A DNA stretch of 64,000 bases from Xenorhabdus nematophila ATCC 19061. Its GTDB lineage: Bacteria; Pseudomonadota; Gammaproteobacteria; Enterobacterales; Enterobacteriaceae. The position numbers and the translations under genes are program-made. Position 1 is the first letter of the stretch, and each line of letters starts with the position of its first letter. Positions 1 to 56,989 of this stretch are shown piece by piece. The DNA is taken from positions 1,936,005 through 2,000,004 of the forward strand of contig NC_014228.1 in the NCBI RefSeq assembly GCF_000252955.1. Reading direction: 5' to 3'. The notes beneath the pieces were generated by a model. The model saw nothing but the letters and a program-made list of their open reading frames with translations. It did no database searches and was not told the origin of the DNA.

Positions 1-508
1 GCCTCTTGTTCAGCGAATTCAGCAACCCGCTGAGTATGCAGCTCCGGGTCAAGCTGACAGAAATCATGGAATGAGAGGGTAAAACCAATGTCAGCGGGAT
101 CAATATGTTGACAGGGCTGTCCTCCAACTAAGACAAAGCGGGTACGCAGGCTTTCATGTCGGGCAACCAGACGATCCAGTGCAACGGTTAAGGCATGATG
201 GTCGAGCGAACCACTCAGGCGCAGCGCTGCGGGAAGATGGTAGGCCTGACTGGCCGCCGGATCGAGTTGCCCCAGGAACCACAGGCGTTGCTGGGCAAAA
301 GACAAAGGCAATGGCTGGCTGCGGTCTGCCACGGGAATAATCGCGTGTGTTGTTGTCGCGCTGTCCGTCAATGTGTGAGCCAGTTGCATCAGAACAGGCT
401 GGGCAAAAAGTTGCTGTAACGACAATTCTCGCGCCAGTGTCTGACGAATACGGACAACAAGCCGGACAGCCAGTAGCGAATGACCGCCCAGTTCAAAGAA
501 ATGATCAT
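1..508. repeat. Duplicated T-C block, copy 1 (partial at window edge)
   Basis: Nearly identical, with only a few substitutions, to 9811-10318, same orientation. It covers the T11 active-site region and the N-terminal part of C12, and may continue past the left edge. Identity stops abruptly at about 508, just outside the T-domain GGHSL region. Confidence 0.9.
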
Positions 509-3500: not shown

Positions 3501-6500
3501 AAACCACAGGCGTTGCTGGGCAAAAGACAAAGGCAGCGGCTGACTGCGATCGGTTGTCGGGATCACCGTTTGGGTTGTTTTGGCTATTTCACCCAGAGTA
3601 TGAGCCAGCATCATCAGAACAGGTTGGGTAAAGATCTTGTGTAATGGCAGTTCTCGCGCCAGCGACTGACGTATGCGCGCGACGAGCTGAACCGCAAGCA
3701 AAGAATGACCACCGAGTTCAAAAAAATGGTCATGACGTCCGATGCGTTCCAGCCCCAATAACGTTTGCCAGATCTGCGCCAGAGCGGTTTCTGTTTCACC
3801 AACCGGGGCTTCATAGCGTTGAGCGATCACCGATGATGAATCCGGCGCAGGAAATGCCTGACGGTTAAGTTTGCCACTGGGGGTCAGCGGGAAAGCATCA
3901 AGCGTGACAAAGGCGCTGGGCAGCATGTAATCCGCCAGATGTTGGGCGAGTTCCTGCCGTAATTCAGCCGGTTTCAGCTCAAAGCCCTCTTGCGGTCGCA
4001 GATAGGCAACCAGCCGTTTTTGTCCGGGTTCATCTTCGCGGGCGAGCACAACCGCTTCATGCACACCGTGGTATCCCGCCAATCTGGCCTCAATCTCACC
4101 TAGTTCAATGCGGAAACCACGTAACTTGACCTGAAAATCATTGCGGCCGAGATATTCGATATTGCCATCCGGCAACCAACGACCAAGATCGCCGGTTTTA
4201 TACATGCGGGCATCCGGATGTGCAGAGAACGGATCGGCAAGGAAACGTTCCGCGGTTAGTTCAGGACGGTTCAGATAACCACGGGCAACACCGTTGCCTG
4301 CGATATAGATTTCTCCTGTTACGCCGAGGGGAACGGGGCGGCCGTGAGAGTCGAGAATATAGCTCTGGATATTGGCGATGGGGCGGCCGATGACAGCCGC
4401 TTCGGGTACGCCGTGTTCAGCGGAGTATTCGTACCAAGTGGCATCGCCGGTGACTTCAGAGGAACCATAGAAGTTAAGTAACCGCAGCCAGGGACAATGT
4501 GTGACAACCTCACGTGCCAGCTCAGGCGCAAGTTTCTCCCCGCTGCAAATCAATGTCCTGATTGATTTCAGACTCTCACCGTGATTTTGTATCAACAACT
4601 TCAACAGTGAAGGGACAACCACCAAGTAGTTAACATCAAAACGCTGCAACCCTTCACTGAAACGTACGAGATCTTTGACCTCATGATCGTTGAAAACCAC
4701 CAGTTTGCCACCGGACAGCAATGTCCCCAGTGTTTCAGTCACTGAGTCGACAAAGCTGATACTGGTTTTCAGCGCGGCGACCAAAGGATGTGTCAGGATA
4801 TCACGCACAAACCACAACAGTCGGTTGCACAGGGCCTGGTGACTGTTCATGACCCCCTTGGGCAGACCGGTTGAGCCGGAAGTATAAACAACATAGGCCA
4901 GATGGTGTGCGGTGAGTGCTGACACTTCCGGATTATGGTCGGGCTGAGTTTCCATCAATGATGTTTGGGCATCAAGTATGACAGTCGGTATTGACAGAGG
5001 GTCAGTGTGAGTGAAGATATTGTCTGATGCGGTTTGGGTCAGCAGCACGACCGGGGCTGAATCCTCAAGCATATAGAACAGCCGTTCAGCGGGATAAGCC
5101 GGATCAAGAGGCACATAAGCACCGCCCGCCTTGAGAATGGCGAGCAGCCCGATGACCATTTCCAGACTGCGTTCGACGCACATTGCCACCCGATCATCCG
5201 GGCGTACACCCAATGTGATTAAATAATGTGCCAGACGGTTGGCACGGCGATTCAATTCATCGTAACTGAGCGACTGGTTTTCATGCACTGTATCGCTATA
5301 AACAGTATCCCTACAAACAGTACTTCTACAAACAATAGCGATATCAGCAGGATGGCGTGCGGCTTCGGTTTCAAATAGCTGGTGGATCAGCGCATTTTGC
5401 GGGAAATCTACCTGTGTGGTGTTGAAATCCACCAGTAATTGTTGCTGTTCCGCAGCCGGCAGAACAGGCACTTGCAGAATGGGTTGTTGCGGGTGATGGA
5501 TCAGAGTCTCAATAAGTCCACGGATAGCGGTGACCAGATAGTTGATGATGCGGGCAGGATCGAGGCTATCAACGGTCTGGGCCATCAGGTGGAAATCAGT
5601 GCCTGAATCATCCACTGACAGACTAATGGGGTAATTGGTTCGTTCTTCAGCGGCTAAGACGCGCATACCTGCCCAAGCCGCGTTAACTGCATCAGATTCG
5701 TTGACGTGATTATGGCGATAGTTTAGCAATACACTGAACAACGGCGTCGGTTGCGCCACACCACTGCATTGTTGAGCCAGTGATAACGGCGCTTGTTCAT
5801 GTTCCAGCAACTCGGTCAGATTCCGGTAGGTGGCTTTGACCACCTCCAGCGCGCTATGTTCGTTCAGGGAAATACGCATAGGCAAAGTATTGATGAACAT
5901 GCCCAGTATTCTGCCGGCACCTGAAATCCCCTGGAGACGACCCAATAATACAGAACCAAAAACCACATCATCGTGACCGCTGGTGTGTGCCAGTACTTGT
6001 GCCAGAGCAACATGGAACAGGACGCTGGGGCTGATGCCCAGACGACGAGCCTGAGAGCGAATGGCTTTCGCCAGCTCTGGTTCGATCGGGCGGCGGGCTT
6101 CATTGATGGCACTGTGGTCACTTTGTACTTTGAGTATCCCGAAGGGCGCCGTTGGCTCATCTATGTCCGCAAATCGGGCACGGAAATAATCCTCATGCGC
6201 CGTCATCGGCATACTTAATGTTTGGGCAATAAAGTTACGGTAGGGCAATGCGGGTGGCAGTATCTCAGCCTGTTCCTGCAACGGATCATGTTTTAACTTA
6301 TTCCTCTGTAGCACAAGGGCAATTTCAGCGAAAATCAGCTCCAGTGTCATATGGTCGCTGACCAGATGATGGAAACGTAAAGACAGCAACCATTCATTCT
6401 GTATCGGGTCATGGGCAAAATCAGTCGCAAACAGGGGGGCGTGACCCAAGTTGAGACGATGCCGGCGCGGATCAGTATGAGCACGCAACTGAGAAGTCAC

Positions 6501-9500
6501 ATCATCCGTGGTTGCTGGCGTGAATAGGTTGGCAGACAACGTTGCCTGACGCCAGACCACTTGCACCGGTTCAGCCAGATCCTGCCAATAGGCGGAAGTG
6601 CGCAGAATATCATGGCGATTGATGACTGTTTGCAGGGCATTGAGAAAAGCATCAAGGCGCTCACGGGTATCGAAAGCGAGCATACTTTGCAGCAGATAAT
6701 CATCTCCCTGAGTCTGCAACAAATGCTGGAACAGGATGCCTTTCTGCAACGGTGCCAGCGGATAGATATCCTGGACATTGCTTACCCCGCCGGGGATTGT
6801 ATCGGTAATGGCGTTGATTTCGTCCTGGGACAGCGAAACCAGCGGCAACATTTCCGGTGTTATCTCAGTGCAGTCCGCAGGGATGAGATTGGGCGGCACA
6901 ACAAAATCACGGGTGTCATTTTGAGAGGCCAGAATGGATTGAGCCAGTTCGTTAAGAACCGGTGTGGCAAATACACTGCGGACGTCAAGCCGCCAGCCGA
7001 AATTGTGCAGTTGTTCTATCAGGTTGACGATCATCAGTGAGTGCCCACCAAGCTCAAAGAAATGGTCATAACGCCCGACTTGCTCTAATTTCAGCAAATC
7101 CTGCCAGATTTGCACTAAAGCCGTTTCTACTTCCCCGATGGGGGCTTCATATCCGCGGGCGACTACGGCGGATGAATCCGGGGCCGGCAGTGCCTGACGG
7201 TCGAGTTTGCCATTGGGGGTGAGCGGGAACGCATTGAGCATCACAAAAGCACTGGGGAGCATATATTCAGCAAGATGCTGAGCCAGTTTCCGGCGCAGTT
7301 CCGCCGGGATTAATTCAACCCCATCCTGAGGCCGCAGGTAAGCAACCAGCCGTTTCTGTCCCGCTATATTTTGATAAGCCAGGTCTTCACGTACGATAAC
7401 CACCGCTTCACGCACACCTTCACATTTCATGAGCTGGATTTCGATCTCGCCCAATTCAATCCGGAAGCCGCGCAACTTGACCTGAAAATCGTTGCGGCCG
7501 AGGTATTCGATATTGCCATCGGGCAACCAACGCCCCAGATCGCCGGTTTTGTACATACGTGCGTTCAGATCAGAGCAGAACGGATCGATAAGAAAACGCT
7601 CAGCCGTCAGTTCGGGACGATTGAGATAACCACGGGCAACGCCACTCCCTGCGATATAGATTTCGCCGGCGACACCGATTGGTACAGGTTGTTGCTGTGC
7701 ATCAAGGATATAAATTCGGGTATTGGCGATGGGGCGACCGATATGACTGACAAAACCAGTCTCCCGATCCATGCGTGTCCAGGTTGAATAGGTTGTGGTC
7801 TCTGAAGGGCCATAGAGATTACACACATTCTGGACTGTGGAACGGGAAAACAAATGTTCCACAATATGGGGTTTCAGGGCTTCCCCGGCTAAATTGACCG
7901 TGTGAATTTTTGCGGGAATGGCGTTGGCTTCAATTAAATGCGCAATGGCCGATGGCACGGTATTAAGCAGGGTGGCGACTTGTTTTGTAGAAACATATTT
8001 TGTCGCTGAGTGTTCCGTTGTGATGAGCGATAACGCATCGGGAATAATATGAACCGTGCCGCCGGAAATCAGCGGGGCAAAACATTCATATACCGCCAGA
8101 TCAAAATTCAACGAAGTCGAGAAAAGGGTTTGGTTCAGTTCTTCAGGGCTGAAAGTGCGTTTTGCCCAAGTGAGGAAATTCACGGTATTACGATGGGCGA
8201 TGGCAACGCCTTTTGGCAATCCGGTAGAACCCGACGTGTAGATCACATAAGCCAGATGAGATGAAGTCAAACCCAGTACCTGCGCATCGGGATTATCAGA
8301 GGATTGCGTTCCTGTGAATGATAGTGTACCTGTGCATGATCGTGTTCTTGTGAATTTCGGGTCGTTCAGGATGTCTTCAATAAATACCGCCGGCACGGAA
8401 CCCGATAATTTATCAGCCAGTGTTTTTTGCGTCACAATGGCTACCGGTGCCGCGTCCTCAAGGATATAGGCCAGCCGTTCTGACGGGTAAGCGGGATCGA
8501 GAGAGACATAGGCACCACCGGCCTTGAGAATGCCAAGCAGCCCTGCGATCGTTTCCAGATTACGTTCGACGCAAATTGCCACACGATCATCCGGACGTAC
8601 ACCCTGTGCCATCAAATGATGTGCCAGACGATTGGCGCGTTGGTTCAGTTCAGCATAGCTGAGTGATTGTTCACCATAAACGATGGCTGTAGCGTCGGGA
8701 GTTTTGGCTGCCTGTGCTTCGAAGAGTTGATGGATCAGCGCATCTTGCGGGAAATCTGACGCAGTAGCGTTGAATTCTACCAGCAGTTGTTGGCGCTCTG
8801 TTTCCGTCAGCATAGGCAGGGCTGCGATGGTTTGTGTTTCATCATCGGTCATGGCGGTCAATATATTGGTTAAATAGCCGACCATGCGCTCAATCGTTGT
8901 TGTGTCGAACAAATCTGCGGCATAGGCCAAGGCACCCGCCAGGCCTGTTTCAGTTTCAGTCAGTGATAACGTGAGATCAAAATGCGTTTTATGCTGCGAT
9001 TGTTCACAGGGTTTCAACTGTAGTCCGGGTAATGTCAGCGCTTGGGCGGGTGTATTGTTTAACGCCAGCATTACCTGAAAGACCGGGCTATAACTCAGAT
9101 TACGTTCAGGCTGGAGGGCTTCCACCACTTGCTCAAAAGGTAAATCCTGATGGTCATAGGCGGCAAGTGCCCGTTCCCGGACTTGGGCAATCAGTTCAGC
9201 GACGCTGAGATCGTGATTAAATGTGACCCGCAGCGCCAGCGTATTGACAAAGAAACCAATCAGTTCTTCAAGTTCATGGTGCGGACGGTTGGCAACCGGT
9301 GTACCGATGACAATATCATCCTGACCACTGAGTCTGGAAAGTACAATACTCCATGCCGTCAGCACAGTCATAAATAATGTACTGTTATGGCGCTGTCCAA
9401 GTGTCTTAAGCGATGCTAATAACGGGGCATCAAGATGGAAAGGAACGTGATCACCGACATAAGATTGCAGTGCCGGACGGGGCCGATCCGTAGGCAGTGT

Positions 9501-13427: not shown

Positions 13428-13438
13428 GTCATTCCTTA

Positions 13439-16400: not shown

Positions 16401-16869
16401 TGTAGTTGAGCAAGGATCGGTTGAGATGAAATATCGCTTTCTGTGGCGGGTGCAAAGATATTGATAGCCAGAGGCGCCTGACGCCAAACGACCTGTACCG
16501 GTTGTTTCAGCCCCTGCCAATAAACCGCCGTGCGCAGAATATCATGACGATCAATCACTTGTTGCAAAGCCTCTAAAAAGCGATCAAGACGATGGCGATT
16601 ATCGAAGGCCAGCAGGCTCTGCAACAGATAAGTATCTCCCTGATCCTGCATCAGATAATGGAACAGAATACCTTCCTGTAAAGGTGACAGCGGGTAGATA
16701 TCCTGTACCTGACTTGCCCCGGCGGGAATAAGATCCACAATGTCATCAATTTCTGTTTGGGAGAGGGCAACCAACGGCAGCATATCGGGGGTGATGGCAG
16801 TACAGCCTTCAGGAACAAGGTTAGGAGGAACAATAAATGCGTGAGTATCGCGCCGGAGAGTCTGTGCCA
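13439..16869 (-). other. NRPS module 7: dual C/E, A (hydrophobic, unassigned), T, docking tail
   Basis: Approximate limits. The N-terminal His motif is HYLMQDQGD, with Tyr in place of the second His. The A code reads DAWLLGAVAK, one position away from modules 2 and 8, so a similar hydrophobic substrate is expected. Confidence 0.7.
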
Positions 16870-20167: not shown

Positions 20168-20181
20168 GTGCTTTCTTTCCA

Positions 20182-23100: not shown

Positions 23101-23629
23101 TGCCGGATCATAAGCTATATTTGCGGCAAACAACGGCGCACGATCCAGAGCGAGACGGTGCGTGCGGGGGTCAGTTTGTGCCCTGAGCTGATCAGCCACG
23201 TTATCGGCAGTCACCGGATTGAACACATTGACAGTCAGCACTGCCTGACGCCAGACCACCTGAACCGGCTGCTCCAGATCTTGCCAGTACGCCGCAGTGC
23301 GCAGAATATCGTGGCGGTCGATAACGTGTTGCAACGTCGTGAGGAAAGTATCAAGGCGCTCACGGCTGTCGAAAGCCAACAGACTTTGCAGCAGGTAGTT
23401 ATCCCCCTGTGCCTGCAATAAGTGATGGAACAGGATACCTTCCTGCAACGGGGCGAGCGGATAAATATCCTGTACATTGTTTGCCCCGCCGGGAACCGTT
23501 GCAACGATGGCGTCAATCTCCGCCTGAGACAAACAAACCAGCGGCAGCATGTCCGGTGTGATGGCAGTACAATTTTCCGGGATAAGATTGTCCGGTACGA
23601 CAAAGGCATGGGTATCACGGTGAATAGTC
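20182..23629 (-). other. NRPS module 5: dual C/E, A (Val-like), T, C-terminal docking tail
   Basis: Approximate limits. Code DAWWLGGTFK, identical to modules 1 and 6. The C/E domain has HHLLQAQGD and HHLVSDH and carries a Lys/Asn-rich insertion encoded by three 15-bp repeats at 22961-23005. The tail after the T domain resembles that of the second gene. Confidence 0.75.
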
Positions 23630-26600: not shown

Positions 26601-29600
26601 CGACCAGCACAAAGCGGGTGCGCAGAATTTCCTGTCGGGCGACCAAACGATCGAGTGCCCCGGATAACGCAGGAGGGTTGAGCAAACCACTCAGGCGCAA
26701 TGCGGCAGGAATATGGTAAGCCAGGCTGGCTGCCGGATCGAGTTGACCCAAGAACCATAACCGTTGCTGGGCAAAAGAAAGGGGCAGCGGTTGGTTACGG
26801 TCAGCCACGGGAATTGTCGCCTGAGCAGTGACGGAAGCGCCGGTTAATGCCTGAGCCAGATCCGCCAGCAGCGGTTGGTCAAACAGTTGCTGCAATGACA
26901 ACTCTTTTGCCAATACCTGACGGATGCGTGAAGCCAACTGGACGGCAAGCAATGAATGACCGCCCAGTTCAAAGAAATGATCGTGGCGACCCACACGCTC
27001 CAGCCCCAGCAAATCTTGCCAGATCTGAGCCAGTGCGATTTCTGTTTCACCGACAGGGGCTTCATAACCGCGTGACACGACAGAGGATGCGTCAGGGGCG
27101 GGAAGTGCCTGTCGGTCGAGCTTACCGTTAGGTGTCAGCGGGAAACTTTCCAGCATCACAAACGCACTGGGCAGCATATAGTCAGCAAGGTGTTGGGCAA
27201 GTTGCTGACGCAGTTCCGCCGGAACCAGTTTAATCCCCGTTTGTGGCCGCAGATAAGCCACCAGACGTTTTTGTTCTTCCGTACTCGTACTTTCGTGCGC
27301 CGCGTCTGCACGGAGCAGAACCACGGCCTCGCGTACGCCGTGGCATTGTCTGAGGCAGGTTTCTATTTCACCCAACTCAATGCGAAAGCCACGCAATTTC
27401 ACCTGAGTATCGTTGCGGCTGAGGTATTCGATATTGCCATCCGGCAGCCAACGACCGAGATCGCCGGTTTTGTACATACGTGCTTCTGGCCCGGAGGAGA
27501 ACGGATCGGCAAGGAAGCGTTCCGCGGTCAGTTCAGGGCGATTCAGGTAACCCCGTGCGACACCTGCACCGGCAATATAAATTTCACCGGCGACGCCGAC
27601 AGGAACAGGCCGGCCTGTTCCATCCAAAATATAGGCCTGAGTATTGGCGATAGGCTGACCGATGGGGATAGTGATTTCAGTGTCATTATCTTCCATCAAG
27701 GGGATTTCATAGGCGGTGGCGAAGGTGGCTGTCTCCGTCGGGCCATACACATGCAGTAAATGGTCAGGTGAATGTTCGGCTCTGAGGCGGATCGCGGCAC
27801 GGGTATCGGTTTTTTCACCCCCGAAAAGCACGTAACGTAAACCCGATAAAGCCGGGGCGATTAAATTCGCATATTGGTTAAATAGCGCCGTTGTCAGGAA
27901 TAACGCACTGACACCTTCGTCTGACAGATGCTGGCCGAAATCAGCGGGCTGCAACAGGGTTTTTTCGGGGATCAGCAGGATACGGGCACCCTGAATTAAT
28001 CCTCCCCACACTTCCCACGTGGTGGCATCGAATGAAACATTGGCACAATGGGCAATACAGTCATCCGGCCCAATATCGGCAAAACGGTTATTGATGACCA
28101 ACCGCAGCACATTGCGGTGCTCGACCATCACGCCTTTCGGCTGGCCGGTGGAGCCGGAGGTGTAAATGACATAGGCCAGATGGCGTGAAGTCAGCCCCAA
28201 TGCCTGAATATCCGGATTTTCGTTCGATTCAGCCGGTAAGAACGCATCCTGATGGTGCAGGGCATTATCCAGTAAGACGGTTGGCAAGGTTGCGGGCAGA
28301 ATACTGGCGAGCTTGTTAACCCATGCTGTTTGGGTAAGTAAAGCTATCGGGGCGACATCGTCAAGCATATAGGTCAGCCGCTCAGCCGGATAAGTCGGAT
28401 CAAGCGGGACATAAGCACCGCCGGCCTTGAGGATTGCCAACAGGCCGATCACCATTTCCGGGCTGCGCTCGAGACAGATGGCAACTCGATCATCCGGCTG
28501 TACACCCAGCGCAATCAGGTGATGGGCCAGACGATTGGCGCGTTGGTTCAGTTCGCTATAGCTCAGCCTGTGCCCCTTGCCGATCACGGCAGTGGCATCG
28601 GGGCGAAGTGCCGCCTGAGCCTCAACCAGTGAGTGAATCAGTCTATCCTGCGGGAAATCTGTCTGGGTGGCATTGAAATCCACCAGCAGTTTTTGCCGTT
28701 CAGCTTCCGGTAAGATCGGCACATCCAGAATTGATTTTTTCGGCGCGTGAGCTAAGGCATTGACCAGGCCTTTGATCGCGGTAGCCATATAGGTGGTGAT
28801 GTGTTCCGGCACAATTTCAGTGATGGTCAGGGCGGTCAGTTGGAAATCATGGCCTAAATCATCCACGGACAGGGTAATCGGGTAATTGGTTCTCTCTTCC
28901 GCAGAGAGCAAACGCATCTCTGCCCACATGGCGTTAACCGCCTCGCCGGTATGGCCTTTGGCGGTCTGGCTATGGCGATAATTCAGTAAGGTACTGAATA
29001 TCGGCATGGGCTGTGCCACCTCACTGCATCGTTGGGCCAGCGCCAGCGGTGCCTGCTCGTGTTCCAACAGGGTGGTCAGATTACGGTAAGTCTCTTGCAC
29101 AATGTCTTGTACATTGCATCCGTTCAGGGAAATACGGAACGGCAGGGTATTGATGAACATACCCAGTATCCGATCAGCACCTGCACCACCCTGAAGGCGT
29201 CCCGACAATACTGAACCGAACACGACATCGTTGTGTCCGCTGGTTTGTGCCAGCACCTGAGCCCATGCGACATGGAACAAGACACTGGGACTGACGCCTA
29301 AACGACGCGCCTGAATGCGGATATCATCAGACAGACCAGAAGGCAGCAAGATCCGGTTTTTTGCCACTGATCTGCGGGCATTGGCGGGTTCACTCTGTTT
29401 TTGTGTCTCTTTGGGTAGGGTGAACACACCAAAAGGGGCCGTTGGTTCATCAATACCGGCGAGTTGCTCCCGGAAATAGGCCTCATGTATTGCAGGCGAT
29501 ACATTCAGGATCTGGGCAATAAAGTTACGATAGGGCAGTGTTTGTACATTTTCTCGTAATATATTTCCCTGCAATATCAGGGCCATTTCAGCGAAAATCA

Positions 29601-32600
29601 GATCCAGTGTCATATGGTCACTGACCAGATGATGGAAACGCAGTGCCAGCAGCCATTCACCCTGTACGGGATCGTGAGCAATATCTGCGGTGAACAACGG
29701 TGCCTGATTCAGATTGATGCGATGCAGGCGTGGATCAGTGTGAGCCTGTAATTGAGACAAAACATCGTTTTCTGAATCAGGCATAAAAACGTTGATGCTT
29801 AATGCTGCCTGACGCCAGACCACCTGAACCGGCTGCGCCAGATCCTGCCAGTAAGCTGAGGTTCGCAGGATGTCATGGCGGTCAATCACTTGCTGCAAGG
29901 CATTCAGGAAAGCATCAAGTTGCGCACGTGTGTTGAAGGCGAGTAAAACCTGTAACACATAGTCATCACCTTGTGTCTGCAACAGGTGATGGAACAGGAT
30001 ACCTTCCTGCAAGGGGGCGAGCGGATAGATATCCTGCACATTGGATGCCCCGCCGGAAACAGTCACAACAATGGCGTCAATCTCAGCCTGAGACAGTGAA
30101 ACCAGCGGCAGCATATCCGGCGTAATGGCTGCGCAATTTTCCGGAATAAGATTGGCAGGCACAACAAAGGCATTGGCTTCACGTCGGATGACCTGTGCCA
30201 TATCAGCGAGAATCGGTGCGGCGAAAACACTGCGTACATCGAGTTGCCAACCGAGATTGCGCAGTTCTTCAATCAGGCTGACAATCATCAGTGAATACCC
30301 GCCCAGTTCAAAGAAATGGTCGTGACGGCTGACCTGTTTCACACCCAAGAGTTTTTGCCAGATCTGAGCCAGAGACGTCTCTGCTTCGCCCATCGGGGAT
30401 TCATGATGGCGTGTCACAATTGCAGATGACTCCGGCTCAGGAAGCGCCTGTCGGTCGAGTTTTCCGTTCGGGGTGAGCGGGAAAGCCTCAAGGGTGACAA
30501 ACGCACTGGGCAGCATATGCTCAGCAAGGTGTTGGGCAAGTTGTTGACGCAGTTTTGCTGGCTCCAGCTCAGCACCTGACTGGGGCAGCAGATAGGCGAC
30601 CAGCCGTTTTTGTGTTGTTTCACTGTTTTCACGCGCCAGAACCACCGCTTCACGCACCCCGTGGCACTGTCTGAGGCGAGTTTCGATTTCCCCCGGTTCA
30701 ATGCGGAAACCCCGCAATTTGATCTGAAAATCATTGCGGCCGAGGTACTCAATATTGCCATCCGGCAGCCAATGCCCCAGATCGCCGGTTTTATACATCC
30801 GGGCATCTGAATTGGTTGAGAACGGATCAGTCAGAAAGCGTTCCGCAGTCAGTTCAGGGCGGTTGAGATAACCACGGGCAACGCCCGCGCCGGCAATATA
30901 GATTTCGCCAATGACACCACGCGGGACAGGCTGAGCGTGGGCATCCAGAATATAGATTTGAGTATTGGCGATAGGGCGACCAATCGGCGGCGGATTATCT
31001 TCTGCACGATCATCGGAATAGTGCGCACAGGAATAGATTGTGGCGCAGACGGTGATTTCCGTCGGGCCATACGCATTGAGCATCCGGCGGCCCTGTGACC
31101 AGCGTTTGACGAGTGTTGATGTACATGCTTCACCGCCCACCAACAGGGTATGCAGGGTGTCGGGCAGAGAATCCATCGCGGCCAGAGCCGTCGGTGATAG
31201 GAGAACATGGCTGATGAGGTTGTCTCTCAAATAGCCGGACAGCACCGCACCGGGCAGAATATCGGCACGTTTGGCCAGATAGAGGCTGCCGCCTGACTGG
31301 AAAGCCATGCAGCATTCCCAAATACAGGCATCGAAGCTGTTTGAGGCGAACTGTAAGACGCGGCTGTCCGCCGTGAGTGCCAGCGTGTTTTGCTGGGTCG
31401 TCATCAAATTGCACAGACTCTGGTGTTCGATCATCACGCCTTTTGGCTGACTGGTTGAGCCTGACGTGTAGATAACATAGGCCAAATGATGCGGTGTCAG
31501 CCCCAGCCTCTGAGGATTGGGGTTATCCGTTGGCTGCGCGGCCAAAAGCAGTTCATCGTTATCCAGTAAGATCGTCGTTAGTACACTGGAAATCGGTAGT
31601 GCACTGGAAAGTTTATCTACCCAGTCGGTTTGGGTCAGCAATGTCACAGGAGCGGCATCGTCAAGCATGTAAGCCAGTCGTTCGGCCGGATAAGCGGGAT
31701 CAAGCGGCACATAAGCACCGCCCGCTTTGAGGATGGCAAGTAAACTTATCACCATCCGGGGGTTACGTTCAGAACAGACGGCGACTCGATCGTCCGGACG
31801 GACGCCCTGTGCAATCAGATAATGTGCCAGACGATTTGCCCGACGGTTCAGCTCACCATAACTGAGTTGCTGCCCTTCAAAGACCACGGCGGTTGCCTCA
31901 GGGCGATGTGCCGCCTGAGCCTCAAAAAGTTGGTGGGACAGCGAGTCGTGGGGGAAGTCCGCTTGGGTGGCATTGAAATCCACCAGCAGTTGTTGTTGCT
32001 CCGATTCCGGTAACATCGGCAGAGTTGCAACGGACTGCGTTTCATCAGTCACCATTGCGGTCAGTACATTGGTCAGATAACCGACCATGCGCTCCGCAGT
32101 TGCGGCATCAAAGAGATCGGCGGCATAGGTCAGATCTCCGGTCAGGCCCGATTCAGTTTCAGTCAGTGACAGGGTGATATCGAAATGTGCGCTGCGGTGC
32201 GCCTGTTCAACTGGGGTAAATTGCAAATCAGGTAGCGTCAGTGCTTCTGCCGGTATGTTATTTAAAGCCAGCATCACCTGAAAGATCGGGCTGTAGCTCA
32301 GGTCGCGTTCAGGTTGCAGCGCTTCCACCACCTGTTCAAAAGGCAGCTCCTGATGGGCATAGGCGGTAAGTGCCTGTTGCCGGATGTGGGCGAGCAGGTC
32401 AGTGACGCGATGGACATGATTGAATCTGACGCGCAAGGCCAGCGTATTGACGAAGAAACCGATCAGCCCTTCAAGCGCCTGATGCGGTCGGTTAGCGACC
32501 GGTGTACCGATAACGATATCATCCTGACCACTGAGTCGGGCAAGAACGAGACTCCAGGCACTCAGTACCGTCATAAACAAAGTGGTGTTATGGCGTTGCC

Positions 32601-35600
32601 CAAGTGCCTTAAGTGATGCCAACAAATCAGCATCAATGCGGACAGGGATGAAGCCACCGACAAACGATTGGGTTGCCGGACGGGGGCGGTCAGTCGGCAA
32701 TGTCAGTAGCGCGGGAGCGCCTTTAAGTTGGGAATGCCAGAAATCACGCTGTTCCGTGACGGCTGTGTCCTGTAACTGATTGCGCTGCCAGACGGCATAG
32801 TCGGCATACTGAACCGGTAATGGCGCTAAAGAACTCTCCTGATTGTCGAGAACGGCACGGTACAGGGCGCTCAGTTCATGTATCAGCACCCCGATAGACC
32901 AGCCATCAGAAATAATATGGTGTTGGGTGATCAGCAATACATGCTCTTTATCAGACAGTTGCAGCAGATGCCCGCGGATCAGGGGGCCTTGGGTAAAGTC
33001 AAACGGTGTTTGAGCTTCAAGTACCGTCAGTGCCTCAATACGGTGAGTGTGCGTTTCTGGTGCCCATGGGCGCAGGTCTTGATAAGACAGCGTAAAGCCA
33101 GTATCAGCAGGATCAATATGCTGGTAAGGATGACCCGCGACTAATACGAAGCGGGTACGCAGAATTTCCTGCCGCGCAACCAGACTATCAAGTGCGTCGG
33201 ACAAAGCATGACGATTGAGCTGACCCGTCAGGCGCAGGGCGACAGGGATGTGGTAAGCCAGACTGGCGGCCTGATCAAGTTGACTCAGGAACCACAATCT
33301 TTGCTGGGCAAAAGATAAAGGTAAACGTTGATCCCGGTCAGTCACGGGGATTGATATCTGGTTCGTTGCCGAAATTCCCGTGAGCATTTTTGCTAAATCC
33401 AGCAAAACTGGTCGGTCAAAGAGCTGCTGGAGTGACAACTCCCGTGCCATATCCTGACGTATATGCGCAATGAGCTGAATGGCAAGCAATGAATGCCCGC
33501 CCAGTTCAAAGAAGTGATCATGACGACCCACTTGTTCCAGTCTCAGTAATTTTTGCCAAATTTGAGCCAGTGTAATTTCGATCTCACCCTCAGGGGCTGC
33601 ATAGTGGCGGGTGACGACTGCGGATAGATCCGGTGCTGGCAGTGCCTGACGATCAAGTTTGCCATTCGGCGTCAGCGGGAAACTGTCCAGGATCACAAAA
33701 GCACTGGGCAGCATATAGTCAGCAAGATGCCGGGCGAGATGCTGGCGCAATTCAGCGGGGATCAGTTCAGTATCGGTGTGTGATTGCAGATAAGCGACCA
33801 GATGTTGCTGACCTGATTCATCCGGGCGGGCGAGGACAACGGCTTCACGCACGCCACGATATTCCATCAATTTAGCTTCAATTTCCCCCGGCTCAATGCG
33901 GAAGCCACGTATTTTGACCTGAAAATCATTGCGCCCCAGATAGTCAATATTGCCATCAGGCAACCAGCGACCCAGATCGCCGGTTTTGTAAATACGCGCA
34001 TTGGCATCTTGGGAAAACGGATCAATCAGGAAGCGCTCAGCAGTGAGGTCAGGGCGGTTCAGATATCCGCGGGCAACACCGGCTCCGGCAATATAAATTT
34101 CACCGGCAACGCCGAGTGGTACAGGCTGGCGCTGTGGATCAAGGATATAGATCTGAGTATTACCAATCGGGCGGCCGATAGGAATGGCGTGAGCGATATC
34201 AACAGGAGACGCAATCACACAAATTGTGGCAAATGTTGTCGTTTCCGTCGGGCCATAGCCGTTGAGCAAATGTGCAGGTTGTGATTCAGCCTGTTGTACC
34301 TGCCGGATTTTCCGCGGGTCAAGAACATCACCGCCAACCAGCAGATAACGCAATTGTCCAAACAGGGGCTTGAGCGTGTCAAGATATTCATTGAACAGAC
34401 CTGCGGTTAACCAGAGCGCAGTAACTTGCCCCTGCATCAGTGAATCATGGAAACGTACCGGATCGAGCAGCTCGGATTGTGAAACCAGATGCAGACGCCC
34501 GCCGTTGAGCAGGGCAGACCAGATCTCCCATGTTGAGGCGTCAAAGGCAATATTGGCGCAATGGGCCACACAATCATCCCGGCCGAGCTCAGCAAAACCA
34601 TTGTTGATGATAAGGCGGAGGACATTGCGGTGTTCAACCATCACCCCTTTAGGCTGCCCGGTTGAGCCTGACGTGTAGATGACATACGCCAAATGACGTG
34701 ATGTGAGATCCAACGCCTGTGCGTCCGGATTATGCGATGGCTGTTCTGCCGGGAATAGCGCTTGGGTATCAAGCAAAAGTGTCGGTATGCTTTTTTCAGC
34801 TTTTCTTTCAGATATGGCACTGCCTAGTTTGCCCGCGTGTGCTGTCTGGGTGAGCAAAACGACAGGTTCTGCATCCTGAAAGATATATGCCAGCCGTTCG
34901 GTCGGATAAGCCGGGTCAAGTGGCAAATACGCCCCGCCTGCTTTGAGGATAGCCAGCAGACCGATAATTAAGTCCGGATGACGTTCAAGACAGATTGCGA
35001 CCCGATCATCGGGGCGCACACCCAGTGCAATTAAATGGTGGGCCAGTTGATTGGCGCGTCGGTTCAGTTCACCATAGCTGAATGTCAATTCGCCGAAAGT
35101 GACTGCGGGAGCCTCAGGACAACGTGCCACCTGAGCTTCGACTTGTTGGTGTATCAATGTTTGCTGAGGGAAGTCTGCTTGAGTCGCGTTGAAATTCACC
35201 AACAATTGTTGCTGCTCTGCGTGTGGCACTATCGGCAGATGCCGAATTTGTGTGTCAGGAGATGCAATGGCAGCTTCTATCAGCACGCGTAAGCGGGATT
35301 TAAGTGCCACAATTTCAGCCCGTGTCAGATAATCAGGTGAAAAATTAAACTCAAGGGTGACAGGTTTATGGATATCCTCACTGTCAGCAAAGGCATACTG
35401 GTAGATGGCAATAAGCAGAGGAAACGGTGTGCCACGTTGTATTTGTGTATAGGTGAGCGTGGCGTTGGGTATACTGGCATTCACTTCAACCCATTCATAT
35501 GACAGCATAATGTCAAAGAGCTGAGCATGTCCGGTTTTTTGCTGAACTTGTATATTCTGGTTAATCTCTGTGATTGGCAGGCGCTGACGTTTATAACAAC

Positions 35601-36624
35601 GCCGTAATTCTGCTGCGGCCTTATTCATGATATCGAGGAAAGTGTCATGGGGGGCAAGGGTTACGCCGACCGGAATAACAGATGAAAACATACCCACCGT
35701 GCGTTTTTGTCTGATGTTTTTACGGTTATATACGGGAATGCCGATGACAATCTCTTCTGCATCGTTTGTACGTGAAAAATGAAGGGTACGGAAGAAATAG
35801 CAAGCCAGAACGGCATACATAAAGTGCAGGACAGATAACCCTTGTGCAGCCACAGTCTCTTCTATGCACTGAAACAGCGCTTTATCCAGTTCCCAGAATA
35901 GAGGTTCGGTGGATTCAGGCTGACCGGCTTTAGTGGATATTGAGGGTGAGATTAAGGTGGGAGATACGTTTTTATAGCGTTCTTGCCAGAATTGCCTATC
36001 TTGTCTGTAGCGTTGTGAGTTTAGATAATCATGGTCTTCATGAATAAAGTCGAGATAAGAGGGGGGAATCTCGGTAAATTCTTCTCCCTTGAGAAGACGG
36101 TTATAGGCATCGGCAATAGATTCGGGAATAAGTTTGAAAGTGATAGAATCCCCAATCAGATGATGGCAAAGGAATTGCCAATACCAACGCTGATTATTCA
36201 CCCGTATCAAGTCAAAATGCCATAGCTCGCCATTTAAATCAAACGTGCGCATGAAAGCATTGCGAAGGTGTTTTTTAGCTTGTCCTTCTGCATCCGCATA
36301 GTCTGAAAAATCATGGATTGTCATTTCCACTGGCAACGTTTTTTTGAGTTCTTGCAGTGGTAGTCCTTGCGTTTCTATGAGTCGTAAACGTAATGCGTCA
36401 TGACGATAAACAACGGTTTCAAAAGAGCGCCTTAACAGCGCTTCATCCAATTTTCCCTCAATCAGTACAACTGAACCTATGTTATAGCAAGGACTGTCCG
36501 GTCGAAGGATATGGTCAAGCCAGACAACTTGCTGAGTCGTACTGAGAGAAAATTGGCAGGTAGAAGAATCCTTATTCACTGAGGATTTATCTTCGTTGTT
36601 GATACGATTGCATGACATAGACAT
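20182..36624 (-). CDS. Non-ribosomal peptide synthetase, first gene with starter C domain (five modules)
   Basis: NRPS of 5480 aa that initiates the assembly line: Cstart-A1-T1, C2-A2-T2, dual C/E3-A3-T3, C4-A4-T4, dual C/E5-A5-T5, C-terminal acidic docking tail (EELMALLGDEN). The first domain is divergent from the other C domains and carries HHLIGDS near residue 153 instead of HHxxxDG; a C domain before the first A domain implies acylation of residue 1. SGSTG-type loops lie near 649, 1718, 2820, 3900 and 5000; T serines near 1044, 2111, 3223, 4298 and 5399. The dual C/E domains show HHLLQTQGD or HHLLQAQGD near 2210 and 4399 and HHLVSDH near 2331 and 4519. Codes: Val-like, X, X, Thr (exact match to the Thr code), Val-like. 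Two starts are possible: ATG 36624 with GAGGAA upstream, or ATG 36618 with AAGGA upstream. Xenoamicin-type synthetase is the best guess; family certain. Confidence 0.97.
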   Translation of the reverse strand: MSMSCNRINNEDKSSVNKDSSTCQFSLSTTQQVVWLDHILRPDSPCYNIGSVVLIEGKLDEALLRRSFETVVYRHDALRLRLIETQGLPLQELKKTLPVEMTIHDFSDYADAEGQAKKHLRNAFMRTFDLNGELWHFDLIRVNNQRWYWQFLCHHLIGDSITFKLIPESIADAYNRLLKGEEFTEIPPSYLDFIHEDHDYLNSQRYRQDRQFWQERYKNVSPTLISPSISTKAGQPESTEPLFWELDKALFQCIEETVAAQGLSVLHFMYAVLACYFFRTLHFSRTNDAEEIVIGIPVYNRKNIRQKRTVGMFSSVIPVGVTLAPHDTFLDIMNKAAAELRRCYKRQRLPITEINQNIQVQQKTGHAQLFDIMLSYEWVEVNASIPNATLTYTQIQRGTPFPLLIAIYQYAFADSEDIHKPVTLEFNFSPDYLTRAEIVALKSRLRVLIEAAIASPDTQIRHLPIVPHAEQQQLLVNFNATQADFPQQTLIHQQVEAQVARCPEAPAVTFGELTFSYGELNRRANQLAHHLIALGVRPDDRVAICLERHPDLIIGLLAILKAGGAYLPLDPAYPTERLAYIFQDAEPVVLLTQTAHAGKLGSAISERKAEKSIPTLLLDTQALFPAEQPSHNPDAQALDLTSRHLAYVIYTSGSTGQPKGVMVEHRNVLRLIINNGFAELGRDDCVAHCANIAFDASTWEIWSALLNGGRLHLVSQSELLDPVRFHDSLMQGQVTALWLTAGLFNEYLDTLKPLFGQLRYLLVGGDVLDPRKIRQVQQAESQPAHLLNGYGPTETTTFATICVIASPVDIAHAIPIGRPIGNTQIYILDPQRQPVPLGVAGEIYIAGAGVARGYLNRPDLTAERFLIDPFSQDANARIYKTGDLGRWLPDGNIDYLGRNDFQVKIRGFRIEPGEIEAKLMEYRGVREAVVLARPDESGQQHLVAYLQSHTDTELIPAELRQHLARHLADYMLPSAFVILDSFPLTPNGKLDRQALPAPDLSAVVTRHYAAPEGEIEITLAQIWQKLLRLEQVGRHDHFFELGGHSLLAIQLIAHIRQDMARELSLQQLFDRPVLLDLAKMLTGISATNQISIPVTDRDQRLPLSFAQQRLWFLSQLDQAASLAYHIPVALRLTGQLNRHALSDALDSLVARQEILRTRFVLVAGHPYQHIDPADTGFTLSYQDLRPWAPETHTHRIEALTVLEAQTPFDFTQGPLIRGHLLQLSDKEHVLLITQHHIISDGWSIGVLIHELSALYRAVLDNQESSLAPLPVQYADYAVWQRNQLQDTAVTEQRDFWHSQLKGAPALLTLPTDRPRPATQSFVGGFIPVRIDADLLASLKALGQRHNTTLFMTVLSAWSLVLARLSGQDDIVIGTPVANRPHQALEGLIGFFVNTLALRVRFNHVHRVTDLLAHIRQQALTAYAHQELPFEQVVEALQPERDLSYSPIFQVMLALNNIPAEALTLPDLQFTPVEQAHRSAHFDITLSLTETESGLTGDLTYAADLFDAATAERMVGYLTNVLTAMVTDETQSVATLPMLPESEQQQLLVDFNATQADFPHDSLSHQLFEAQAAHRPEATAVVFEGQQLSYGELNRRANRLAHYLIAQGVRPDDRVAVCSERNPRMVISLLAILKAGGAYVPLDPAYPAERLAYMLDDAAPVTLLTQTDWVDKLSSALPISSVLTTILLDNDELLLAAQPTDNPNPQRLGLTPHHLAYVIYTSGSTSQPKGVMIEHQSLCNLMTTQQNTLALTADSRVLQFASNSFDACIWECCMAFQSGGSLYLAKRADILPGAVLSGYLRDNLISHVLLSPTALAAMDSLPDTLHTLLVGGEACTSTLVKRWSQGRRMLNAYGPTEITVCATIYSCAHYSDDRAEDNPPPIGRPIANTQIYILDAHAQPVPRGVIGEIYIAGAGVARGYLNRPELTAERFLTDPFSTNSDARMYKTGDLGHWLPDGNIEYLGRNDFQIKLRGFRIEPGEIETRLRQCHGVREAVVLARENSETTQKRLVAYLLPQSGAELEPAKLRQQLAQHLAEHMLPSAFVTLEAFPLTPNGKLDRQALPEPESSAIVTRHHESPMGEAETSLAQIWQKLLGVKQVSRHDHFFELGGYSLMIVSLIEELRNLGWQLDVRSVFAAPILADMAQVIRREANAFVVPANLIPENCAAITPDMLPLVSLSQAEIDAIVVTVSGGASNVQDIYPLAPLQEGILFHHLLQTQGDDYVLQVLLAFNTRAQLDAFLNALQQVIDRHDILRTSAYWQDLAQPVQVVWRQAALSINVFMPDSENDVLSQLQAHTDPRLHRINLNQAPLFTADIAHDPVQGEWLLALRFHHLVSDHMTLDLIFAEMALILQGNILRENVQTLPYRNFIAQILNVSPAIHEAYFREQLAGIDEPTAPFGVFTLPKETQKQSEPANARRSVAKNRILLPSGLSDDIRIQARRLGVSPSVLFHVAWAQVLAQTSGHNDVVFGSVLSGRLQGGAGADRILGMFINTLPFRISLNGCNVQDIVQETYRNLTTLLEHEQAPLALAQRCSEVAQPMPIFSTLLNYRHSQTAKGHTGEAVNAMWAEMRLLSAEERTNYPITLSVDDLGHDFQLTALTITEIVPEHITTYMATAIKGLVNALAHAPKKSILDVPILPEAERQKLLVDFNATQTDFPQDRLIHSLVEAQAALRPDATAVIGKGHRLSYSELNQRANRLAHHLIALGVQPDDRVAICLERSPEMVIGLLAILKAGGAYVPLDPTYPAERLTYMLDDVAPIALLTQTAWVNKLASILPATLPTVLLDNALHHQDAFLPAESNENPDIQALGLTSRHLAYVIYTSGSTGQPKGVMVEHRNVLRLVINNRFADIGPDDCIAHCANVSFDATTWEVWGGLIQGARILLIPEKTLLQPADFGQHLSDEGVSALFLTTALFNQYANLIAPALSGLRYVLFGGEKTDTRAAIRLRAEHSPDHLLHVYGPTETATFATAYEIPLMEDNDTEITIPIGQPIANTQAYILDGTGRPVPVGVAGEIYIAGAGVARGYLNRPELTAERFLADPFSSGPEARMYKTGDLGRWLPDGNIEYLSRNDTQVKLRGFRIELGEIETCLRQCHGVREAVVLLRADAAHESTSTEEQKRLVAYLRPQTGIKLVPAELRQQLAQHLADYMLPSAFVMLESFPLTPNGKLDRQALPAPDASSVVSRGYEAPVGETEIALAQIWQDLLGLERVGRHDHFFELGGHSLLAVQLASRIRQVLAKELSLQQLFDQPLLADLAQALTGASVTAQATIPVADRNQPLPLSFAQQRLWFLGQLDPAASLAYHIPAALRLSGLLNPPALSGALDRLVARQEILRTRFVLVDGQPCQHIDPADRGFTLSYQDLRPLTPEKQSHRIAEMTAREAQTPFDFTQGPLIRGHLLQLADEEHVLLLTQHHIISDGWSIGVLMNELSTLYSHVLNGQASPLPPLPIQYADYAVWQRHWLQDATLTTQRDFWCEKLSGAPTLLTLPTDRPRPTVHSYAGNRVPVCFSADLLTSLKGLGQRHNTTLFMSVLSAWSIVLARLSGQDDIVIGTPIANRPHHELEGMIGFFVNTLALRIRFSDELSVVDLLAQVKEQAFAAYAHQDLPFEQVVEALQPERSLSYSPVFQVMLSLNHMPTQTLTLPDLQLIPMEQDHHSAHFDLTLSLTETEEGLVGELAYAVDLFDTATIERMIGYLTNVLTAMVTNETQAVATLPMLPESERQQLLTGFNTVRMNFPQDRLIHQLFEAQAAAQPDAVAVVLEEQTLSYGELNRCANRLAHHLIAQGVRPDTRVAICVERSLEMVVGLLAILKAGGAYVPLDPAYPADRLAYMFEDAAPVALLTQTEWLDKFANVLSAVTLPTTLLDPLPDNQESFLATQPSNNPDTQALGLTSRHLAYIIYTSGSTGQPKGVMVEHANIIRLFAATQARFQFDNHDVWTLFHSFAFDFSVWELWGALVYGGRLVVIPADCARSPHRFYSLLCREQVTVLNQTPSAFRQLISAQDATPHSLRYIIFGGEALELHTLAPWVARNPTQQTRLVNMYGITEITVHATYRELTEADIHAGRGSLIGQPLADLRIYILDTCGQPVPPGVTGELYIVGDGVARGYLNRPELTAERFLADPFSPDSQARMYKTGDLGRWLADGNLEYLGRNDFQVKIRGFRIELGEIEARLEQCHGVREAVVLARADDNGQKRLIAYLLPQDNAELVPAELRQQLSQHLADYMLPSAFVTLESFPLTTNGKLDRQALPAPDSSAVVVHRYEAPAGEMEIVLARIWQHLLKLERVGRHDHFFELGGHSLMIVSLIEELRRLGWQLDVRSVFIAPVLAEMAQTIHRDTHAFVVPDNLIPENCTAITPDMLPLVCLSQAEIDAIVATVPGGANNVQDIYPLAPLQEGILFHHLLQAQGDNYLLQSLLAFDSRERLDTFLTTLQHVIDRHDILRTAAYWQDLEQPVQVVWRQAVLTVNVFNPVTADNVADQLRAQTDPRTHRLALDRAPLFAANIAYDPAQTEWLLVLRFHHLVSDHMTLELIFAEMALLLKKNEPKKNKLKNNKLQGNTEKLPVALPYRNFVAQTLNMPTADHEAYFRAQLADIHEPTAPFGILNVQTESERVTEDRLFVTPDLAESIRAQARRLGVSPSVLFHAAWALVLAQTCDRDDVVFGSVLLGRLQGGAGADQVLGMFINTLPMRVSLAQRTVKDVVQATYHNLMMLLEHEQAPLVLAQQCSGMPQSMPLFSTLLNYRHSQPGNVAATDTFWSGMRILAAEERTNYPITLSVDDLGDDFRLTAQAIAGIEPARVIRYLVTAISGLVNALVREPQRLMRDIAILPATERQQLLVDFNATESHFPQNGLIHPLFEAQAARNPDTIAIEFAGQTLSYGEVNRRANRLAHHLIALGVRPDSRVAICVERSPALIIGLLAILKAGGAYVPLDPNYPAERLTYILDDSAPVALLTQEAHLNKLSATLPTVLLDNDETLLATQPIDNPDIQALGLTSHHLAYVLYTSGSTGQPKGVMTEHRNVLRLIINSGFADIGPDDCIAHCANMAFDASTWEIWSALLNGARLHVVSPSVLLDPVRFCDSLMQGQVTALWLTAGLFHEYLDTLKPLYGQLRYLLVGGDILDPGKIQQVKLAESQPAHLINGYGPTETTTFATTYDIASPVDVTRSIPIGRPIGNTRIYILDSRGQPVPLGIVGEIHIAGAGVARGYLNRPELTTERFLLDPFSQGTHARMYKTGDLGRWLPEGNIEYLGRYDFQIKLRGFRIEPGEIETKLRQCHGVDEAVVLAREETAYENPTGQKRLVAYLRPLDGVELMPAELRQQLARQLADYMLPSAFVILDSFPLTPNGKLDRQALPAPDASAAATREYEPPKGRIETVLAQIWQELLDLSRISRHDNFFEIGGHSLMVVRLITRIQNKLLVNIPLTSLFAAPTLKEQADIILSAQMEAIGDNEIESMQDDLDSMSAEELMALLGDENTHGDGR
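22961..23005. repeat. In-frame tandem repeat, 3 x 15 bp
   Basis: Units at 22961-22975, 22976-22990 and 22991-23005 encode a Lys/Asn-rich insertion (KKNKLKNNKLQGN) in the C/E5 domain that the homologous domains lack or carry in shorter form. Confidence 0.75.
23630..26849 (-). other. NRPS module 4: LCL-type C, A (threonine), T
   Basis: Approximate limits. Code DFWNIGMVHK is identical to the standard threonine code. The following module begins with a dual C/E domain, so this residue is predicted to be D-Thr or D-allo-Thr. A Thr hydroxyl is a typical site for lactone closure in depsipeptides. Confidence 0.85.
26850..30189 (-). other. NRPS module 3: dual C/E, A (hydrophobic, unassigned), T
   Basis: Approximate limits. 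The C domain starts DIYPLAPLQEGILFHHL and has HHLLQTQGD, the extended N-terminal His motif of dual condensation/epimerisation domains, plus HHLVSDH. The A code reads DAWFLGVTFK, which I cannot assign; a bulky aliphatic is plausible. Confidence 0.7.
30781..31866. repeat. Duplicated A-domain core, copy in module 2
   Basis: Counterpart of 10788-11855. Contains an 18-bp in-frame tandem duplication (31576-31611) absent from the module 8 copy, and the SGSTS substitution in the A3 loop. Confidence 0.92.
31576..31611. repeat. In-frame tandem repeat, 2 x 18 bp
   Basis: Two units ending in the shared string ACTGGAAA, at 31576-31593 and 31594-31611. The near-identical module 8 copy has a single unit, so this is a recent expansion. 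Confidence 0.8.
33390..36624 (-). other. NRPS module 1: starter C, A (Val-like), T
   Basis: Approximate limits. Residues at the ten specificity positions, aligned to GrsA, read DAWWLGGTFK. This differs from the classical Val code DAFWIGGTFK at two conservative positions, so Val or another branched aliphatic is likely. The upstream C domain lacks the LSFAQQRLWFL start shared by the ordinary C domains of this cluster, which supports a lipoinitiation role. Confidence 0.75.
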
Positions 36625-56866: not shown

Positions 56867-56989
56867 GTTTTATCCAATCTATTTTTATCCGAAATGATAA
56901 AACACCCAATGAATTCCAAATTGTAGCGTGGTGATAATATAACTTATCCAACCAGGCAACATCGTTGAAATAAACGGGTATAAAATAAA

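What the first reader, a model, noticed from the sequence alone, without database searches (positions are those of the whole stretch)
1..36624. Assembly line for an acylated hydrophobic peptide of 12 or more residues, xenoamicin-like
Seen: three collinear NRPS genes, eleven complete modules, a starter C domain, and pocket residues reading Val-like, X, X, Thr, Val-like, Val-like, X, X, Ala-like, beta-Ala-like, Pro. Known: xenoamicins are acylated tridecadepsipeptides of mostly hydrophobic residues made by XabABCD in Xenorhabdus. Inference: this is a xab-type cluster or a relative with a different sequence. D residues are predicted at 2, 4, 6 and 9.
Basis: partly seen in the sequence, partly recalled or inferred. 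Interest (0 to 1): 0.8.

Follow-up and report, generated by a model that had tools for sequence, protein, structure and literature searches.

The report
Rearranged twelve-module xenoamicin synthetase
This is the Xenorhabdus nematophila version of the known enzyme assembly line that makes xenoamicin peptides; it appears to have lost two units at its start and gained one patchwork unit in the middle, so it should make a shorter-tailed, larger-ringed relative of the known compounds.

Summary
Three collinear NRPS genes carry 11 complete modules in the window; with the DNA left of base 1 there are 12 modules, tandem thioesterases and an aspartate decarboxylase (PanP) that would supply beta-alanine. 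The genome is Xenorhabdus nematophila. The cluster is homologous to the xab (xenoamicin) synthetase of other Xenorhabdus, and a 2021 paper already labels this locus 'Xenoamicine'. What I did not find in print is its architecture. Of ten other complete xab-like clusters read here, eight have 13 modules, one 14 and one 18; none has 12. Two differences explain it. The starter C domain is fused to the A domain of the third module, so the first two modules (Pro-Ala) are gone. An extra module stands at the start of the third gene; its DNA is a recent mosaic (97-99.6% identity) of places in the same cluster, with switches at the A-domain hinge and the FFELGG motif of the T domain. Predicted product: acyl-Val-D-Val-Ile-D-Thr-Val-D-Val-(Val/Leu)-Val-D-Ala-betaAla-Pro-Val, closed through Thr, [M+H]+ near 1217.8 or 1231.8. 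The product and the activity of module 2 are untested.

The parts
20182..36624 (-). NRPS gene A (XabA-like), 5480 aa: starter C + 5 modules, codes Val / DAWLLGAVC / DAWFLGVTF / Thr / Val
13439..20182 (-). NRPS gene B (XabB-like), 2247 aa: 2 modules, Val / DAWLLGAVA
1..13442 (-). NRPS gene C (XabC-like), 5999 aa in full, running to L018:15443 left of base 1: 5 modules DAWLLGAVC / Ala / beta-Ala / Pro / Val, then TE-TE. 15 bases further (L018:13661-15427 -, outside the window) lies the PanP aspartate 1-decarboxylase
35128..36456 (-). Starter C domain (HHLIGDS), orthologous to the starter C of xab (85% to X. szentirmaii)
35017..35076 (-). Approximate fusion zone (about residues 517-536, after SYGEL): before it the protein follows module 1 of X. 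szentirmaii, after it module 4 (third module of the 13-module clusters); scar of the lost Pro and Ala modules
30502..31911 (-). A domain of module 2 (DAWLLGAVC), donor of the core of A8; carries TSGSTS instead of TSGSTG in the P-loop
23938..25374 (-). A domain of module 4, Thr code DFWNIGMVH; presumed ring-closing hydroxyl
28612..29931 (-). C domain of module 3, dual C/E type motif HHLVSDHMTL (D residue 2)
22045..23367 (-). C domain of module 5, dual C/E type motif (D residue 4)
15311..16600 (-). C domain of module 7, dual C/E type motif (D residue 6)
5361..6668 (-). C domain of module 10, dual C/E type motif (D residue 9)
8779..11987 (-). Inserted A8-T8-C9 unit (about 3.2 kb) between the C domain and the Ala A domain of the ancestral first XabC module
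11851..11987 (-). Mosaic tract 1: C-A linker copy, 134 of 137 bases as in the C9/A9 junction
10781..11856 (-). Mosaic tract 2: A-domain core, about 97% identical to A2 of the same cluster (33 substitutions and one gap in 1076 bases)
10291..10715 (-). Mosaic tract 3: A C-terminal subdomain, linker and start of T, 417 of 425 bases as in A12-T12
8779..10319 (-). Mosaic tract 4: end of T through C9, 1535 of 1541 bases as in T11-C12; the switch from tract 3 falls in HDHFFELGGH

Best explanation
This is the X. nematophila form of the xenoamicin synthetase. Shown by sequence: a starter C domain, 12 modules on three proteins, dual C/E domains following modules 2, 4, 6 and 9, tandem TEs and a PanP decarboxylase beside them. 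Shown by sequence: compared with the 13-module xab line, modules 1-2 are missing (starter C fused into the A domain of the third module) and one mosaic A-T-C unit, copied from elsewhere in the same cluster, sits at the start of the third gene. Inferred: the starter C loads a short acyl group (C4 or C5) on Val1; the chain grows as Val-D-Val-Ile-D-Thr-Val-D-Val-Val/Leu-Val-D-Ala-betaAla-Pro-Val; PanP makes beta-alanine from aspartate; a TE closes the ring from the Thr4 hydroxyl to Val12. The product would be a xenoamicin with a 3-residue acylated tail and a 9-residue ring (5 and 8 by the same reading of xab). Two L residues in a row (7, 8) would break the strict D/L alternation of the xenoamicin backbone.
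For: Domain map and codes. Orthology to six xab-like clusters, strictly in order against X. szentirmaii. Ten other complete xab-like clusters with 13, 14 or 18 modules, none with 12. PanP at 767.9 bits against a cut-off of 606.1. Mosaic tracts and switch points. Calibration: the 13-module code string with C4 acyl, DAWLLGAVC read as Val and a lactone gives [M+H]+ 1300.8239; the theoretical value for xenoamicin A in PMC8042232 is 1300.8238. The codes of G004 can be read as the class III string TAVLLTTLLAAPA, whose C5-acyl lactone has the published formula C63H109N13O17. D-Ala before beta-Ala matches D-Ala10 of xenoamicin (PMC12668312). The locus is labelled 'Xenoamicine' in PMC8159955.
Against: No structure from X. 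nematophila was seen in any source here. Specificity rests on pocket codes; Val, Ile and Leu positions can be swapped without changing total mass, so the calibration fixes composition, not order. The pairing of A1 with the third module is clear in 3 of 6 clusters (X. szentirmaii, G026, G018); in the other three the Val-type A7 is the best match. A2 has Ser for the P-loop glycine (90 of 91 A domains examined have Gly) and three more private changes at positions invariant in the orthologs. PanP is not peculiar to xab: 21 of 29 other genomes of the genus have it, and G009 and G013 have no NRPS in the roughly 50 kb fetched on the side where xab would lie. Ring closure at Thr4 is by analogy; PMC12668312 prints 'threonine-8' for xenoamicin, whereas the only Thr code in the five 13-module clusters is at module 6.
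Confidence: 0.8

Rival explanations
1. The line is a xab homologue, but module 2 (P-loop change) or the mosaic module 8 is inactive or skipped, so it makes an 11-residue peptide, a stalled intermediate or very little.
For: A2 alone of 91 A domains has TSGSTS. A2 has four changes at positions invariant in its orthologs that A8 does not share; A8 has four others of its own. Module skipping is reported for class III xenoamicins (PMC8163882).
Against: Changes at otherwise invariant positions are no more frequent here than in five relatives: A2 8 of 288, relatives 4-33 of 284-313; this cluster is the highest in 0 of the 21 domain rows counted. The frames are open and the 12 T serines and both TE motifs are present. 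Its genes are 2.11-2.68 times higher in wild type than in an lrp mutant (PMC5313471).
Confidence: 0.15
2. The 12-module form is ancestral; the relatives gained Pro-Ala and lost module 8.
For: Only one X. nematophila genome was available and no outgroup to the genus was aligned.
Against: The starter C is followed by the start of an A domain that still matches module 1 of X. szentirmaii up to about residue 535 and then switches, as a deletion scar would. Module 8 is 97-99.6% identical in DNA to donors in its own cluster, while orthologous domains differ by 11-26% in protein from the nearest relative. Nine of ten other complete clusters start with Pro.
Confidence: 0.05
3. The extra module is an assembly artefact of near-identical repeats.
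For: T8-C9 and T11-C12 share 1541 bases with 6 differences, a hard case for assembly. No second assembly of the species could be examined.
Against: The inserted unit joins several donors, carries private differences in each tract (3, 33, 8 and 6 substitutions) and keeps an open frame; a collapse or swap between repeats would not make a new combination.
Confidence: 0.04

Closest known systems
Xenoamicin synthetase XabABC and decarboxylase XabD (also named XabABCD + XabE) of X. doucetiae, MIBiG BGC0000464
   Same: Three NRPS genes in the same order, starter C, dual C/E domains, Thr code, Ala-betaAla-Pro-Val end, TE-TE, adjacent aspartate decarboxylase; domain-level orthology
   Different: 12 modules instead of 13: first two modules missing, one mosaic module added at the start of XabC; ring and tail sizes predicted to differ; D/L alternation broken once
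Class III xenoamicins (XAM) of Xenorhabdus sp. KJ12.1 (PMC8163882)
   Same: Same family; acylated 13-mer with alternating D/L configuration; a cluster whose codes fit that string is in G004
   Different: 13 modules and different codes; no module loss or gain of this kind
X. szentirmaii DSM 16338 xab-like cluster (G001 / L039)
   Same: Nearest relative among those read, 74-89% protein identity per orthologous domain
   Different: 14 modules, with an extra Gly module after Pro and no extra module in XabC
NRPS diversification by exchange of A cores, A-T-C-A stretches and modules (PMC8097286; microcystin, iturinic peptides)
   Same: Intragenomic recombination with joints at conserved A motifs and the native C-A linker kept
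   Different: Here a whole extra module stands in the line, and the A C-terminal subdomain and the T domain also come from different donors

Membership tests
xab / xenoamicin synthetase | Three collinear NRPS genes, orthologous domain by domain to xab | tested here: met
   strictly in order against X. szentirmaii, with cross-matches among Val-type A domains in the 13-module clusters
xab / xenoamicin synthetase | Starter C domain for an acyl group | tested here: met
   Ortholog of the xab starter C: 68-85% in the five clusters where it was compared, 63-84% for the ten complete clusters; acyl transfer itself not tested
xab / xenoamicin synthetase | Thirteen modules | tested here: not met
   12 modules
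xab / xenoamicin synthetase | Ala-betaAla-Pro-Val at the C-terminal end, tandem TE | tested here: met
xab / xenoamicin synthetase | Aspartate decarboxylase next to the last NRPS gene | tested here: met
   TIGR03799; PanP also occurs without xab in some genomes
xab / xenoamicin synthetase | Strictly alternating dual C/E domains up to beta-Ala | tested here: not met
   C/E motif at 3, 5, 7, 10 here; 3, 5, 7, 9, 11 in five 13-module clusters
xab / xenoamicin synthetase | Product is an acylated hydrophobic depsipeptide closed through Thr | not testable with these tools
   Needs LC-MS/MS and NMR; PMC8159955 only labels the locus 'Xenoamicine' in a table

The most novel reading that the evidence does not exclude
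X. nematophila makes an undescribed 12-residue xenoamicin class with a 3-residue tail and a 9-residue lactone. It arose by a module deletion and by natural insertion of a mosaic module whose joint in the T domain lies at the same FFxxGG site that engineers use for exchange units, so nature used that site to add a working module, and the beta-helical D/L register of the product is broken at residues 7-8.
Probability: 0.45. Interest if true: 0.6.

Novelty: new variant of a known kind. Interest (0 to 1): 0.42.

Why it matters
The family and even the label of this locus are known, so the finding as given is close to ordinary. The added value is a clear, recent, single-cluster example of how an assembly line loses and gains modules: the donors of the new module are all present in the same cluster, and the joints fall at the A1 motif, the A-domain hinge, the T-domain GG motif and the C-A linker. 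It makes the question 'can a naturally inserted chimeric module work?' directly testable in a well-studied strain, with a defined expected mass, and it predicts that the X. nematophila compound differs from the described xenoamicins in tail, ring and D/L pattern.

Tried and rejected
Strict identity with xab was rejected because the module count differs. General decay of the cluster was tested by counting changes at positions invariant in relatives and was not supported; the A2 P-loop change remains unexplained. A scan of viral contigs with a transporter of the window (nine loci, not used) and a plasmid search with flanking DNA (no match) gave nothing for the finding. Promoter-like sites upstream of gene A were at chance level, 5 found against a mean of 6.6 in shuffles. 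Zhou et al. 2013, the primary xenoamicin paper, is not held; what I say of it comes from later papers and recall. Searches for this locus or architecture in print. Of the 42 papers that hold 'xenoamicin' (40 listed) I read passages of 12, so absence from print is not proven. Searches for the genome sizes returned no papers. Rows left out of the count of ten complete clusters: fragmentary xab-type clusters (G005, G012, G022, G027), fragmentary larger lines (G011, G019), a broken remnant (G020), and the related but different line without a Pro start (G017 with 11 modules, the second cluster of G016, and pieces in G014, G015, G029). G028 was counted although it has no PanP match and does not end in Pro-Val; without it the count is nine. 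Of the 30 loci given I examined 25; of the 30 given. Of the 80 loci I annotated five and used others only for their names.

Full report
Where it is. The genome has contigs of 4,432,590 and 155,327 bases. A stretch of 8001 bases of the smaller one is 100% identical to the plasmid of Xenorhabdus nematophila AN6/1, NZ_LN681228. The sizes are those I recall for X. nematophila ATCC 19061. The NRPS genes of the window then correspond to XNC1_2038-2040 and the decarboxylase to XNC1_2037. That match rests on gene order and on PMC4079199, which lists XNC1_2037-2040 beside XDD1_2281-2289 of X. doucetiae as 'unknown metabolite synthesis' and Mcf2 as XNC1_2028 (passage); a protein with a TcdA/TcdB pore domain indeed lies left of the cluster.

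The observation. Three minus-strand genes hold 12 C-A-T modules and two TE domains; 11 modules are complete in the window. Left of base 1, 15 bases beyond gene C, lies a PanP aspartate 1-decarboxylase (NCBIfam TIGR03799, 767.9 bits, cut-off 606.1). In xab such a decarboxylase supplies beta-alanine (PMC12668312 passages; PMC6305712 passage).

Relatives. The searches covered 29 other genomes of the genus. I could read ten xab-like clusters from starter C to TE-TE: G026 (X. khoisanae MCB), G018 (X. vietnamensis), G003 (X. mauleonii), G016 (contig size that I recall for X. doucetiae), G029, G010, G006, G004, G001 (X. szentirmaii DSM 16338) and G028. Names come from equal contig lengths. Eight have 13 modules, G001 has 14, G028 has 18. 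The usual code string is Pro-Ala-Val-[DAWLLGAVC]-[DAWFLGVTF]-Thr-Val | 2 modules | Ala-betaAla-Pro-Val-TE-TE. Nine of ten start with Pro (G004 with Thr), and nine of ten have an Ala code first in the third gene (G004 a beta-Ala code). G028 is a more distant member: it has no PanP match and does not end in Pro-Val. In fragmentary clusters the best match to the start of the third gene was followed by an Ala-type code in G005, G011, G012, G019, G022 and G027, and by other codes in G014, G015, G017, G020 and G021. The pieces in G014, G015, G017 and G020 look like a related but different line without a Pro start; the one in G021 I did not assign. PanP itself is found in 21 of the 29 genomes, also where the fetched neighbourhood holds no NRPS (G009, G013), so it supports the xab reading only together with the rest.

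What changed here. Domain-by-domain BLASTP against six of these clusters pairs the starter C with the starter C (85% to X. szentirmaii) but A1 with the fourth module of X. szentirmaii (83%) and the third of G026 and G018; in G029, G010 and G016 the Val-type A7 scores slightly better than A3. A2 pairs with the fourth module of all five 13-module clusters, which fixes the register. Along the protein the switch from module 1 to module 4 of X. szentirmaii falls at about residues 517-536, just after the A1 motif SYGEL. So two A-T-C units are missing compared with the 13-module line, three compared with X. szentirmaii. At the start of gene C, C8 pairs with the first C of XabC (88% to X. szentirmaii) and A9 with its Ala A domain (83%); A8-T8-C9 lie between them as an insert.

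The insert is a mosaic. In coordinates of the reverse-complemented cluster (window = 36625 minus the number): 24638-24774 matches the C9/A9 junction at 134 of 137 bases; 24769-25844 matches A2 with 33 substitutions and one gap in 1076; 25910-26334 matches A12-T12 with 8 differences in 425; 26306-27846 matches T11-C12 with 6 differences in 1541. The switches encode LSYGEL, the stretch around GRNDFQVK (hinge between the two parts of the A domain; 25845-25909 fits no donor well), HDHFFELGGH, and RQQLLVEFNAT at the C-A linker. Elsewhere the paralogous stretches compared are mostly 40-85% alike in DNA. One route, not tested, is unequal crossing-over between T11 and T12, which would create the A12-T12/T11-C12 joint in one step, followed by conversion of the A core from A2 and transfer to the front of gene C. 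PMC8097286 reports A-core exchange as the rule, with the C-A linker and the A C-terminal part kept, and an A-T-C-A exchange as an exception (passages). PMC12668312 uses the two conserved glycines of the T-domain motif FFxxGGxS as an engineering fusion site (passages).

Product. For calibration, the 13-module code string with C4 acyl, Val for DAWLLGAVC and a lactone gives 1300.8239, against 1300.8238 given for xenoamicin A in PMC8042232. The G004 codes can be read as the class III peptide TAVLLTTLLAAPA (its mass prefix taken as the acyl group), and the C5-acyl lactone has the formula published in PMC8163882; the m/z printed there, 1320.793, is 0.021 below what that formula gives. These checks fix composition, not the order of Val and Ile/Leu. 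For this cluster they predict C60H104N12O14, [M+H]+ 1217.787 (C4 acyl, Val7), or 1231.802 with one CH2 more. Dual C/E domains at 3, 5, 7 and 10 give D at 2, 4, 6 and 9; in five 13-module clusters they stand at 3, 5, 7, 9 and 11, so the insert adds one L residue and breaks the alternation that gives class III xenoamicins a beta-helix (PMC8163882).

Results against. A2 has TSGSTS where 90 of 91 A domains in seven clusters have TSGSTG. Four of its changes at positions invariant in the orthologs are not shared by A8, and A8 has four others. Counts of such changes are not raised against five relatives: this cluster is highest in 0 of 21 domain rows, so general decay is not supported, but module 2 may be weak. 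No structure from X. nematophila was found. PMC12668312 gives the ring threonine as number 8, while the only Thr code in the five 13-module clusters is at module 6; I follow the codes.

What is known. PMC5313471 lists XNC1_2038-2040 as NRPS of unknown product, 2.11-2.68 times higher in wild type than in an lrp mutant (passages). PMC8159955 lists a promoter-exchange strain for XNC1-2040 with product class 'Xenoamicine' (passages). [quoted passage not shown] So family and label are known; the 12-module mosaic architecture was not met in the passages read.

Noticed in passing
L018:1772-8947 (+): 2391-aa protein with a TcdA/TcdB pore domain and a HopA1 domain, an insect toxin of Mcf type, about 5 kb beyond the PanP gene.
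   Followed up: no
window 37281-37907 (+): 208-aa protein with beta/gamma-crystallin and Membrane_bind domains, divergent from the first NRPS gene.
   Followed up: no
G016:C2:2384546-2428063 (L027-L029): Behind xab and its PanP gene lies a second, related synthetase of 7+2+4 modules with TE-TE, a beta-Ala code at module 5 and its own PanP gene; NRPS genes with a starter-like C domain also follow PanP in G029, G022, G005 and G014.
   Followed up: partly
G028:C1:1898200-1958083 (L195-L197, L225): An 18-module xab-like line (9+2+7 modules, TE-TE); gene sizes in G019 suggest the same pattern there.
   Followed up: partly
G020:C226:1-3486 (L216): A broken remnant of a xab-like starter and Val module on a short contig.
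   Followed up: no
window 30502-31911 (-): P-loop glycine replaced by serine in the A domain of module 2; the copy in module 8 keeps glycine.
   Followed up: partly
window 38687-39544, 42220-42699, 45409-45780: Transposase genes (DDE_3 type and IS200-like) and a phage holin gene to the right of the NRPS genes.
   Followed up: no
window 54834-58311 (+): Probable pseudouridine catabolism operon: PfkB-type kinase (below the cut-off of NCBIfam's pseudouridine kinase model), Indigoidine_A-like protein, nucleoside transporter.
   Followed up: no
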